41,657 nucleotides of DNA, from IMG/VR virus record IMGVR_UViG_3300027868_000014, positions 1 through 41,657 of that record. One strand, 5' to 3'. Source of the DNA: a virus. Below, one piece after another: positions 4,999 through 7,383 of this stretch. A model generated the notes under the pieces. That model did no database searches. It was not told where the DNA came from and saw only the letters and a program-made list of their open reading frames with translations. Within the stretch, counting starts at the first letter, position 1; each line of letters starts with the position of its first letter. A program made the position numbers and the translations under genes.

Positions 4999-5069
4999 TG
5001 GCATCTAAAGCAGAAAGAAAATTCTTAACCACAATATCGTTTTCAACAAGGAGTTCGCTTAATGTTTAA
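4998..5069 (+). CDS. Possible 23-residue coupling peptide
   Basis: Starts in a TAATG overlap with the preceding gene and stops 5 nt inside the next one, bridging the two. The peptide MASKAERKFLTTISF... is basic. It could serve only to carry ribosomes to the peptidase start. Weakly supported. Confidence 0.25.
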   Translation: MASKAERKFLTTISFSTRSSLNV

Positions 5070-5457
5070 GCTATCGAATAGATCAGCACACAGGATGGAC
5101 GGGGTTCACCCTTTGCTTGTGGCATGTGTTGCCCTGGCACTACGTAAATATACCACGATTGATTTTGGTGTCGGTAAAGGCGCAGTAAGGACTAAAGAAC
5201 AGCAGGCGGTATTTGTGGCAGATGGCAAAAGCAAGGCCATGAAGAGCAAGCACTTACCTCAAGAAGACTTTTATTCCCACGCTGTTGATCTTTATCCAGT
5301 AGGATACGGGGGCATGAGCGATATTAGAAAAAAACAAAGCTTCAGAAGGATTAAAAACGCTATGAGTGAAGCGGCGTATAACCTTGGTATAGAGTTAGAA
5401 CATGGGTACGATTGGGGTTGGGATGCCCCGCACCACCAAATTAAGCACATTCTTTGA
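5062..5457 (+). CDS. M15-family peptidase endolysin
   Basis: 131 residues, ribosome binding site AAGGAG 9 nt upstream. Zinc-peptidase motifs of the D-Ala-D-Ala or L-Ala-D-Glu endopeptidase type (M15): SKHL at 62-65 (His64), HAVDLYP at 73-79 (Asp76) and WGWDAPHHQIK at 118-128 (His124 or His125). The canonical SxHxxGxAxD motif carries an insertion of about five residues between the His and HAVD. It should cut peptide bridges in peptidoglycan at lysis. There is no signal peptide, so release would need a holin; candidates lie at 8820-9652. It is the last gene before the first pseudoknot RNA. Confidence 0.85.
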   Translation: MFKLSNRSAHRMDGVHPLLVACVALALRKYTTIDFGVGKGAVRTKEQQAVFVADGKSKAMKSKHLPQEDFYSHAVDLYPVGYGGMSDIRKKQSFRRIKNAMSEAAYNLGIELEHGYDWGWDAPHHQIKHIL

Positions 5458-5486
5458 TTGACAAAATCGGCTACAAATGCAATAAA
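5458..5486 (+). promoter_or_regulatory. Promoter of structured RNA copy A
   Basis: TTGACA (5458-5463), 17 nt spacer ending in TGC, then AATAAA (5481-5486): consensus -35 with an extended -10. The same 30-odd bases recur at 6991 with only a few changes, marking it as a module. The -35 begins on the base after the peptidase stop codon. Confidence 0.7.
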
Positions 5487-5492
5487 TAACCA

Positions 5493-5595
5493 GCTTGTGA
5501 GAGGGCTAAGACAATCTAATCAATTTAAGGCCCGAAAATATGCTCGATGTTTTTAACATCCTCTCACCAGCATTAATTTTCGGGTCTTTTTTATT
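5493..5595 (+). ncRNA. Pseudoknot-terminator RNA, copy A
   Basis: About 100 nt between a promoter and a U-rich tail. Helices visible: P2, 13 bp, 5527-5539 with 5576-5588 (one G-U); inside it P3, ATGCT 5540-5544 with AGCAT 5569-5573; inside that P4, GATGTT 5546-5551 with AACATC 5555-5560. A bulge 3' of P4 (CTCTCAC, 5561-5567) pairs with GTGAGAG upstream (5497-5503, extendable through GCT/AGC 5493-5495), forming a pseudoknot. A T-run (5587-5592) follows, so the 3' half is also an intrinsic terminator. Copy B at 7026 has the same topology with different stem sequences. It may be a free small RNA or an attenuator for the gene at 5611. Rfam membership unknown. Confidence 0.75.
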
Positions 5596-5610
5596 TTAAT
5601 GGAGAACAAA

Positions 5611-5949
5611 ATGAAACCTGAAACAATGATGATTAATGATGTTAAATACGTAAGAGAAGATAGTATAAATTACGTAGCACTTATTGACGAAGCTACAGAA
5701 CCTTTACGCATAATAATGAACGATGATCGTGGGTTGTGCCTTGTTGGTAATGTTAATCTTGATACCGATAACTGGCTTGTGGAAATTAAAAACGCTCGTT
5801 GTATAATTCAGTGGGGAACAAAAGCACACCTTTCTGAACTGGCTGATAAGGGGATTCTGCCTAATACATCCATGGGCCATACATACACGCATAAAATGCC
5901 CCGGTCTAAAATAGCCCTTGTGCTTGAGTGTAATATGGAGAACTGGTAA
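5611..5949 (+). CDS. Hypothetical phage protein (DUF6948-like)
   Basis: 112 residues from ATG 5611, chosen because GGAG lies 6 nt upstream; ATG 5599 lies in the terminator tail without a ribosome binding site. The C-terminal half, VEIKNARCIIQWGT followed by LSELADKGI, resembles a widespread family of small phage proteins with an 'I..WGT..GL.ELA..GP' core that I recall as DUF6948. Function not established. It directly follows structured RNA A, and its stop overlaps the start of the Gly/Tyr/Asp repeat protein. Confidence 0.65.
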   Translation: MKPETMMINDVKYVREDSINYVALIDEATEPLRIIMNDDRGLCLVGNVNLDTDNWLVEIKNARCIIQWGTKAHLSELADKGILPNTSMGHTYTHKMPRSKIALVLECNMENW

Positions 5950-6128
5950 TGTCCGACGGCTACGGATACGGCTACGGATACGGCGACGGCTACGGCGACG
6001 GCTACGGATACGGCTACGGATACGGATACGGCGACGGCGACGGCTACAGCGACGGCTACGGCGACGGCTACGGCGACGGCGACGGCTACAGCGACGGCGA
6101 CGGCTACGGCTACGGCTACGGCTCTTAA
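5949..6128 (+). CDS. Gly/Tyr/Asp low-complexity repeat protein
   Basis: 59 residues, nearly all GY, GD and a few GS/YS dipeptides after MSD, ending GYGS. The start forms a TAATG overlap with the previous stop and has GGAG 8 nt upstream. The DNA is a 6-bp minisatellite (GGCTAC, GGATAC, GGCGAC). Another frame gives an Arg/Leu-rich ORF (5918-6136), rejected because it begins inside the previous gene. Such Tyr/Gly-rich chains are disordered and can self-associate; the role here is unknown. I recall similar short GDGYG proteins in other phage genomes. Confidence 0.7.
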   Translation: MSDGYGYGYGYGDGYGDGYGYGYGYGYGDGDGYSDGYGDGYGDGDGYSDGDGYGYGYGS

Positions 6129-6155
6129 TTAAATAACCAGAATACGGAGGGGATT

Positions 6156-6422
6156 ATGAGCGAACCGAAAGAATATGAATTAACAACCATTGAAGATATT
6201 TTTAACAAGATACCACATGATAAAATAGAATTATGTTTGTCTGAGCTTACCCATGCAATATTAGGATACAAGGCTACACAGGCAGCATTTGAAGCCTTGG
6301 GGCAAGTGTTTAAGTTCCCTGAACTTACATGGGTAGATGATGGTAAAAATGAGATTACGTCTAATTTTATAAACGAAGAAACCGGGGCTTTATTAGGGTC
6401 TGTTTTAACGAAGACAAAATAA
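6156..6422 (+). CDS. Hypothetical protein
   Basis: 88 residues with a CGGAGGGG ribosome binding site. Acidic and helical (starts MSEPKEYELTTIEDIFNKI), no recognised domain. After its stop, a CCCCG/CGGGG hairpin (6427-6455) and about 115 bases of non-coding sequence precede the amidase-like gene. Confidence 0.65.
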   Translation: MSEPKEYELTTIEDIFNKIPHDKIELCLSELTHAILGYKATQAAFEALGQVFKFPELTWVDDGKNEITSNFINEETGALLGSVLTKTK

Positions 6423-6538
6423 AAAACCCCGGTCATTAATACACAGGAGCGGGGCCAAACTTGGGGAAGAATGATGGCTGATTATTATATTAAATTTTTG
6501 GGGATGTCAAGGAGGGGGGCAGTAACCCTTCCACCGGA

Positions 6539-6994
6539 ATGACAGAGTATATTTTTAACTCTTTAGTTGCTACGGCGCTCAAGAATAAGGTGAAACATGC
6601 CCCGTTTGATATCAAGATTATTTATCAGGCAGGTAGTTTTTCGCGATTAGTTAAACGGATCAATGCCGAAAATCCTGCTTTCATTGTTGCGCTTCATTGC
6701 AACGCTTTTGATACCAAGGCCACAGGCAAAGAGGCTCTTTATTCCGGGAGCAGCCATGGGTATTTGCTTGCCCTCAGCATGTACAGCGAACTTACGCATG
6801 AAACGCCATCAAGGTGCGTAAAGATCCGCAGCAAGCATGGGAGAGGCGGTTACTTACTCCACAGGACTAAATCTCCATGTACGATCGTTGAACCGTTTTT
6901 CATCGATAGCCATGAAGCGTTAACTATCGATATCTGCAAGCTTGTCGACGATTATTACACCGGAATACAAGACGCTTTCTTAATGTTGGGTTGA
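6539..6994 (+). CDS. N-acetylmuramoyl-L-alanine amidase-like protein, N-terminus missing
   Basis: 151 residues from ATG 6539. Amidase_3-type features: TEYIFNSLVATAL near the start (zinc-ligand Glu), VALHCNAFD around residues 50-58 (zinc-ligand His), GKEALYSG, and VEPFFIDSHEA near residue 118 (catalytic Glu). The first strand and GHGG motif (first zinc His) should precede residue 1. The frame is open upstream only to a TAA at 6491 and reads ...KEGGSNPSTGM, aligning with where GHGG should be but without His. No ribosome binding site suits ATG 6539; AAGGAGG at 6509 is 23 nt away. It may be degenerate, use a non-standard start, or carry a sequence error. Confidence 0.65.
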   Translation: MTEYIFNSLVATALKNKVKHAPFDIKIIYQAGSFSRLVKRINAENPAFIVALHCNAFDTKATGKEALYSGSSHGYLLALSMYSELTHETPSRCVKIRSKHGRGGYLLHRTKSPCTIVEPFFIDSHEALTIDICKLVDDYYTGIQDAFLMLG

Positions 6995-7019
6995 CAAAAT
7001 CGGCCCAAAATGCAATAAA
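6991..7019 (+). promoter_or_regulatory. Promoter of structured RNA copy B
   Basis: TTGACA (6991-6996), 17 nt, TGC + AATAAA (7014-7019). Near-identical to the promoter at 5458 for over 30 bases, and again placed exactly at the end of a cell-wall hydrolase gene; its -35 overlaps the amidase stop codon. Confidence 0.7.
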
Positions 7020-7025
7020 TAATCA

Positions 7026-7126
7026 TTCGAGTCGAGTCGGATGGAAACCAAATTATTCAGGCCCTTGTTTTATGGGGAGGCAAAAGCCTCACTCGACCCT
7101 ATAGAATTAAGGGCCTTTTTTATTTT
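7026..7126 (+). ncRNA. Pseudoknot-terminator RNA, copy B
   Basis: Same layout as copy A with different bases. P2: AGGCCCTT 7059-7066 with AAGGGCCT 7109-7116. P3: ATGGG 7072-7076 with CCCTAT 7098-7102 (one G-U). P4: GAGGC 7077-7081, AAAA loop, GCCTC 7086-7090. The 7-nt bulge ACTCGAC (7091-7097) directly 3' of P4 pairs perfectly with GTCGAGT upstream (7031-7037). A T-run follows at 7116-7121. Conservation of four helices with changed sequences is covariation-type evidence for a real RNA fold. It precedes the gene at 7138. Confidence 0.75.
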
Positions 7127-7137
7127 AGGAGTACGGC

Positions 7138-7383
7138 ATGAGTGTTTTTCTACTTAACGGCGATTTAGGGCAAATGGCTAAACAAGGCAGGTTTCTTGAA
7201 AATAAAGGGTTCTTGCTCGGAAAGACAGATGTTTTTCCTACGCTTAATAAAGAGGATGTTAAGCCAGCCTTAACTAATATTTTTCGTTCAAGAGTGGATG
7301 GATGGTGGAACTATAGAGATAATCTGATTACTCTTGATATTTGCACCGTTGCTGAATTTAAAGAGGCTCTAATATCCGAATAA
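7138..7383 (+). CDS. Hypothetical protein downstream of RNA copy B
   Basis: 81 residues, ribosome binding site AGGAG 7 nt upstream. No recognised family; contains VDGWWNYRDN and an acidic C-terminus. Like the gene at 5611, it starts just after a pseudoknot-terminator RNA, so its expression from that promoter would need readthrough. Confidence 0.65.
   Translation: MSVFLLNGDLGQMAKQGRFLENKGFLLGKTDVFPTLNKEDVKPALTNIFRSRVDGWWNYRDNLITLDICTVAEFKEALISE

What the first reader, a model, noticed from the sequence alone, without database searches (positions are those of the whole stretch)
5458..7126. Duplicated pseudoknot-terminator RNA module with compensatory stem changes
Two intergenic modules (5458-5595 and 6991-7126) share a near-identical promoter and then a common RNA architecture built from different bases. 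Each has an outer terminator helix P2, nested P3 and P4 hairpins, and a 7-nt bulge on the 3' side of P4 that pairs with a segment near the RNA 5' end, giving a pseudoknot. A: GTGAGAG 5497-5503 with CTCTCAC 5561-5567. B: GTCGAGT 7031-7037 with ACTCGAC 7091-7097. P2, P3 and P4 also differ in sequence but keep pairing. Retained pairing despite changed bases argues for selection on structure. Each follows a lysis-type gene and precedes a hypothetical gene. It could be a phage small RNA, or an attenuator whose upstream strand captures the terminator bulge. I do not recognise the family.
Basis: partly seen in the sequence, partly recalled or inferred. Interest (0 to 1): 0.85.

Follow-up and report, generated by a model that had tools for sequence, protein, structure and literature searches.

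The report
Phage RNA with kissing-loop-locked terminator
Two spots in this phage genome, and at least four more copies in other phages, encode a small RNA of about 100-130 bases whose first hairpin loop pairs with a loop or bulge inside its own terminator hairpin; the shape is conserved while almost every base changes, and it matches no family in the public RNA library.

Summary
Modules A (5458-5598) and B (6991-7127) share a promoter-like block (only 3 central bases differ) and the same fold built from different bases. One refinement: the 5' partner is the loop of a 5' hairpin (P1), so the contact is loop-bulge kissing. It is unlikely by chance (48 and 17 of 20,000 shuffles). Scans of IMG/VR and a descriptor search found four more distinct copies in other phages: two in L089, one in L288 (identical in L290), one in L289. 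There the kissing partner is a hairpin loop (P4). On the four-sequence alignment 98.7% of base-pair cells pair, 23 of 40 pairs show double compensatory changes (0/500 shuffles), and the kissing helix is 100% paired with 3 of 6 pairs covarying. A model built from L288+L289 alone finds both L089 copies (72.7 and 47 bits). A and B align full length but weakly (17-18 bits, not significant alone). No Rfam family matches. Neighbouring genes differ between copies and none is a recognised toxin. Most likely this is a self-contained phage RNA gene (promoter, structured RNA, intrinsic terminator) recognised by shape; a leader controlling the next gene is the main rival. Function is inferred; expression is untested.

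The parts
5458..5489 (+). module A promoter-like block (TTGACA, 17-nt spacer, TGC-AATAAA)
   Evidence: identical to 6991-7022 except 3 central bases; 0 expected by chance
5492..5507 (+). module A 5' hairpin P1; loop GUGAGAGG (5497-5504) is one kissing strand
   Evidence: fold; complementarity test
5527..5588 (+). module A terminator helix P2 enclosing P3 and P4; kissing partner CCUCUCAC 5560-5567
   Evidence: fold, inverted repeat I2
5586..5598 (+). module A U-tract TTTTTTATTTTA
   Evidence: sequence; shared with B
6991..7022 (+). module B promoter-like block
7024..7043 (+). module B 5' hairpin P1; GUCGAGU (7031-7037) is the kissing strand
   Evidence: fold
7059..7116 (+). module B terminator helix P2 enclosing P3 and P4; kissing partner ACUCGAC 7091-7097
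   Evidence: fold
7115..7127 (+). module B U-tract TTTTTTATTTTA
5062..5457 (+). upstream gene of A: endolysin, phrog_465; its stop codon abuts the -35 of A
   Evidence: E 1.9e-34
5599..5949 (+). downstream gene of A: 112-116 aa, weak DUF6948
   Evidence: E 0.00029, below curated cut-off
6539..6994 (+). upstream gene of B: Amidase_3, N-terminal part missing; stop codon inside the -35 of B
7138..7383 (+). downstream gene of B: 81 aa, no family

Best explanation
A new family of phage small RNA genes. Each copy is a self-contained unit slotted between two tightly packed phage genes: a sigma-70-like promoter at or near the stop codon of the upstream gene, an RNA of about 100-130 nt, and an intrinsic terminator ending just before the ribosome-binding site of the next gene. 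The RNA makes a 5' hairpin (P1), an AU-rich linker and a long terminator helix (P2) enclosing one hairpin and a second element (P4 hairpin, or an open bulge in A and B). The P1 loop kisses the P4 loop or bulge, closing the RNA into a compact fold with both ends in or near helices. Because shape is kept while sequence changes, I infer that a protein (RNA polymerase, a phage or a host protein) recognises the fold, rather than it pairing with a conserved target. Most likely it acts in trans as a stable RNA, like an RNA version of a moron gene. Shown by sequence analysis: the fold, kissing and covariation. Inferred: promoter use, termination, stability, protein binding, trans action.
For: L288 vs L289: 40/40 pairs kept in both, 7 with double changes, 2 of them in the kissing helix; slid registers give at most 1. 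Four-sequence alignment: 98.7% paired, 23/40 pairs covary, 0/500 shuffles, kissing helix 100% paired. Model R1 from L288+L289 finds L089 c1 (72.7 bits, E 4.5e-15) and c2 (47 bits, E 6.7e-9), and aligns B and A over the whole model though weakly (R2: 17.8 and 17.3 bits). L089 c2 shares the AAATGCAATAAATAA promoter block of A and B. Two copies with different kissing sequences in the window and in L089. Neighbouring genes differ between copies. No competing antiterminator fold.
Against: No expression data. A and B are linked to the other four by architecture, promoter (via c2) and model rank only; alone their model scores are not significant. The -10 elements are imperfect; the L289 U-tract is interrupted. 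Every copy is directly upstream of a same-strand gene, which also fits a cis role.
Confidence: 0.45

Rival explanations
1. A cis-acting leader: the kissing fold sets how often RNA polymerase stops before the next gene, and a phage or host factor (or a promoter-bound Q/AlpA-like antiterminator) allows read-through.
For: All six copies end within about 15 nt of the ribosome-binding site of a same-strand gene. Promoter spacers of A and B are 14/17 identical, as expected of a protein-binding DNA element. AlpA recognises an element between -35 and -10 and carries polymerase past downstream terminators at lysis genes (PMC7969949).
Against: Downstream genes are mostly unrelated; gene packing alone explains the spacing; no Q-like or other antiterminator gene was recognised among the proteins scanned; no alternative fold that melts the terminator.
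Confidence: 0.3
2. A dual-function or coding RNA: a 38-57 codon reading frame runs from an ATG at the base of P1 through the hairpin in the four non-window copies, so the structure partly reflects a small protein or leader peptide.
For: Frame open in L089 c1, c2, L288 and L289 with AAGG 9-10 nt upstream where the sequence is present; L288/L289 differences by codon position 7/7/13, 7 synonymous of 19 changed codons against 3 of 20 in other frames.
Against: No such frame at that place in A or B (sequence); no PHROG or phage tblastn match to the peptide; compensatory pairs dominate the changes.
Confidence: 0.1
3. An RNA antitoxin of the type III kind, with the next gene as toxin.
For: Same order as RCd22-abiF in Clostridioides difficile: promoter, about 130-nt structured RNA, leaky terminator, gene (PMC12373285).
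Against: No tandem repeats inside the RNA; no AbiF, ToxN or other recognised toxin or defence protein among the downstream genes scanned, apart from general HNH similarity; different downstream genes at different copies.
Confidence: 0.05
4. Ordinary promoter plus terminator between genes; the kissing pair is incidental.
For: Promoters and terminators between phage genes are common.
Against: Kissing complementarity reached by only 17-91 of 20,000 shuffles in A, B and c2 and compensatory change of the kissing pair across copies.
Confidence: 0.1

Closest known systems
RCd22 RNA of the AbiF system (Rfam RF03085 motif), C. difficile phage
   Same: promoter, structured RNA of about 130 nt with its own terminator, directly before a gene; RNA works through its structure
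   Different: two separate hairpin motifs, always with abiF; no Rfam match here and no abiF downstream
Type III toxin-antitoxin RNAs (ToxI, TenpI, CptI)
   Same: structured RNA and terminator before a gene
   Different: tandem repeats and a nuclease toxin define them; neither was found
Lambda Q / AlpA antitermination units
   Same: promoter with a conserved spacer followed by a short RNA and a terminator near lysis genes
   Different: there the signal is DNA in the promoter; no conserved kissing RNA is known (own knowledge), and no antiterminator gene was recognised here
HK022 put RNAs (own knowledge)
   Same: structured RNA right after a phage promoter, two hairpins, two copies per phage
   Different: put carries no terminator and suppresses termination; no kissing to a terminator is described

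Membership tests
Any Rfam 15 family (4227 models) | score at or above the gathering threshold | tested here: not met
   none in the whole window at gathering score; no credible match in window 5400-7200 or in L288, L289, L089 at permissive E-values
AbiF RNA (RF03085) | abiF motif hairpins and an Abi_2/AbiF gene downstream | tested here: not met
   RNA; downstream proteins; the L289 downstream HNH gene was read by eye only
Type III antitoxin RNA | tandem repeats of about 34-50 nt | tested here: not met
   no repeat family inside the modules
Type III antitoxin RNA | downstream gene is an RNase toxin | tested here: inconclusive
   no PADLOC or Pfam toxin match, but the small genes downstream of A, B and L089 c2 have no informative family, so a toxin cannot be excluded
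Q/AlpA antitermination unit | antiterminator protein encoded by the phage | tested here: inconclusive
   no PHROG match to one among the proteins scanned, but not every ORF was scanned and several have no family
The family described here (kissing-loop terminator RNA) | P1 loop complementary to a loop or bulge inside a terminator helix | tested here: met
   A and B
The family described here (kissing-loop terminator RNA) | significant score with a covariance model built from the other phages | tested here: inconclusive
   A 17.3 bits (E 0.17), B 17.8 bits (E 0.13), full length at the right place; two unrelated window sites score as high

The most novel reading that the evidence does not exclude
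A previously undescribed class of phage RNA in which a 5' hairpin kisses into the RNA's own terminator, present in some genomes as two copies with different kissing sequences, that either tunes transcription termination through a tertiary contact or forms a compact decoy for a host or defence protein.
Probability: 0.35. Interest if true: 0.75.

Novelty: new variant of a known kind. Interest (0 to 1): 0.6.

Why it matters
Phage small RNAs are poorly catalogued, and sequence search misses families like this one, where almost every base changes and only the fold stays. Here one pair of elements in one contig led to a covariation-supported family across separate phage lineages. If the kissing contact acts on termination it would be a new way to control an intrinsic terminator; if it acts in trans it is a new kind of phage RNA effector. 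Both are directly testable with a two-strand compensatory mutant.

Tried and rejected
DNA search of the modules against phages and plasmids: no match. TerL relatives sharing 61-79% identity (L006-L015) and Vibrio phage XM1, the nearest isolate: no module in the sequence held. Relatives of the endolysin: no module seen. Promoter pattern scans in IMG/VR and GTDB genomes: only L089 was convincing. Model or pattern scans of bacterial genomes (1,981 of 2,000 counted, with repeats): one tRNA false positive and one pattern match with no other support; the large model scans were shallow and the pattern fits only the L288/L289/c1 subtype, so absence means little. One candidate in a Lachnospiraceae contig (L206) was left out as unconvincing. 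Small-peptide searches: nothing. Literature: no described equivalent found.

Full report
What is there. Two intergenic units in a 41.7-kb virus record carry the same promoter-like block (5458-5489, 6991-7022) and the same U-tract around RNA bodies whose sequences differ. Each body folds far better than shuffled sequence (z -3.5 and -5.0). The 5' strand is the loop of a hairpin that starts close to the expected transcription start, so the contact is loop-to-bulge kissing inside the terminator hairpin. Shuffling the enclosed region gives as long a complement in 48 (A) and 17 (B) of 20,000 trials.

Finding relatives. BLAST against phages and plasmids gave nothing, and relatives by large terminase (61-79% identity) lack the module in the sequence held. 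A scan of IMG/VR with the promoter block gave L089, where a third, almost wholly different copy sits behind the same AAATGCAATAAATAA block: P1 GAGAA[GUGACAGA]UUCUC, partner CUGUCAC in a loop inside a 14-pair terminator helix. Relatives of the L089 DnaB protein carried the module upstream of dnaB: L288 (identical in L290) and L289. A descriptor search then found a second copy in L089 before an HNH gene (fold z -7.0).

Covariation. L288 and L289 differ at 27 of 96 aligned positions of the core, yet all 40 pairs hold in both; seven pairs changed on both sides, two of them in the kissing helix (GGAUGG/CCAUCC to GGACAG/CUGUCC); sliding the register gives at most one. With the two L089 copies added through model R1: 98.7% of cells paired, 23 of 40 pairs with double changes, 0 of 500 shuffles as good, kissing helix 100% paired with three covarying pairs. 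That alignment was fitted to the structure, though not to the kissing pairs, which the model does not contain; the two-sequence MAFFT result is the cleaner one. R1, built from L288 and L289 alone, finds L089 c1 at 72.7 bits and c2 at 47 bits.

Are A and B members? The architecture is the same: P1 loop, AU-rich linker, terminator helix enclosing a hairpin, and a kissing partner just 3' of that hairpin. They lack the P4 stem around the kissing partner. They share the promoter block with L089 c2. R1 and R2 align both over the whole model at the right places, but with 11-18 bits (E 0.13-3), not significant alone. I take them as divergent members with moderate confidence.

Context. Upstream genes: endolysin (A), truncated amidase (B), a 66-aa helicase fragment (L089 c2), a zinc-finger-like ORF (L288). 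Downstream: weak DUF6948 (A), no family (B), HNH (L089 c1), no family (L089 c2), a replication-type ORF (L288), an HNH-like ORF read by eye (L289). In every copy the next gene's ribosome-binding site starts within about 15 nt of the U-tract. In A, B, L288 and L089 c2 the upstream stop codon abuts, overlaps or lies within a few bases of a TTGACA. The lack of a constant partner gene argues against a dedicated leader or antitoxin; the constant tight packing keeps a cis role possible.

Mechanism. The kissing contact leaves the terminator helix intact, and no competing helix with the linker was predicted (the energy gaps printed there are inflated because inner hairpins were blocked too, so only the absence of a competitor is used). 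A classical two-state attenuator is therefore unlikely. Shape without sequence conservation points to recognition of the fold by a protein, or to a mechanical role of the fold during transcription. I favour an autonomous small RNA gene acting in trans (0.45), then a cis-acting leader (0.3).

A caution. The four non-window copies have an open frame from an ATG at the base of P1 through the hairpin. L288/L289 changes lean to third codon positions (7/7/13), and the frame is kept in the L089 copies despite indels. A and B have no such frame there, and the peptides match nothing. A small translated product cannot be excluded for that subgroup.

Known families. No Rfam match. The nearest working parallel is RCd22-abiF in C. 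difficile (PMC12373285), with the same order of promoter, RNA, leaky terminator and gene, but different RNA and partner. AlpA (PMC7969949) is the parallel for a promoter-bound antiterminator. From memory, HK022 put RNAs are promoter-proximal structured phage RNAs without a terminator.

Limits. Hosts are unknown; the window's TerL is nearest to Vibrio phage XM1 (73%). IMG/VR contigs L089, L288 and L289 are fragments, so copy numbers per genome are minima.

Noticed in passing
window 6510-6416, minus strand: A third promoter-like to terminator-like unit on the opposite strand between A and B: TTGACA-18-AATAAT (11/12), then a CCCCG..CGGGG hairpin and TTTTTTATTTT. No kissing pair was seen by eye.
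   Followed up: partly
window 5951-6128, plus strand: Small ORF made almost entirely of Gly-Tyr/Gly-Asp repeats with a 12-18 bp DNA period.
   Followed up: no
window 6539-6994, plus strand: Amidase_3 endolysin matching the profile only from position 21 on; the N-terminal part of the domain is missing or in another frame.
   Followed up: no
L089 2923-3123: A 66-aa N-terminal helicase fragment ends inside the promoter of the module, as if the module replaced the rest of the gene.
   Followed up: no
L288 and L289, minus strand over the module: Model R1 also scores the reverse strand (25.8 and 35.3 bits), as expected of a long near-symmetric helix; not taken as a second RNA.
   Followed up: partly
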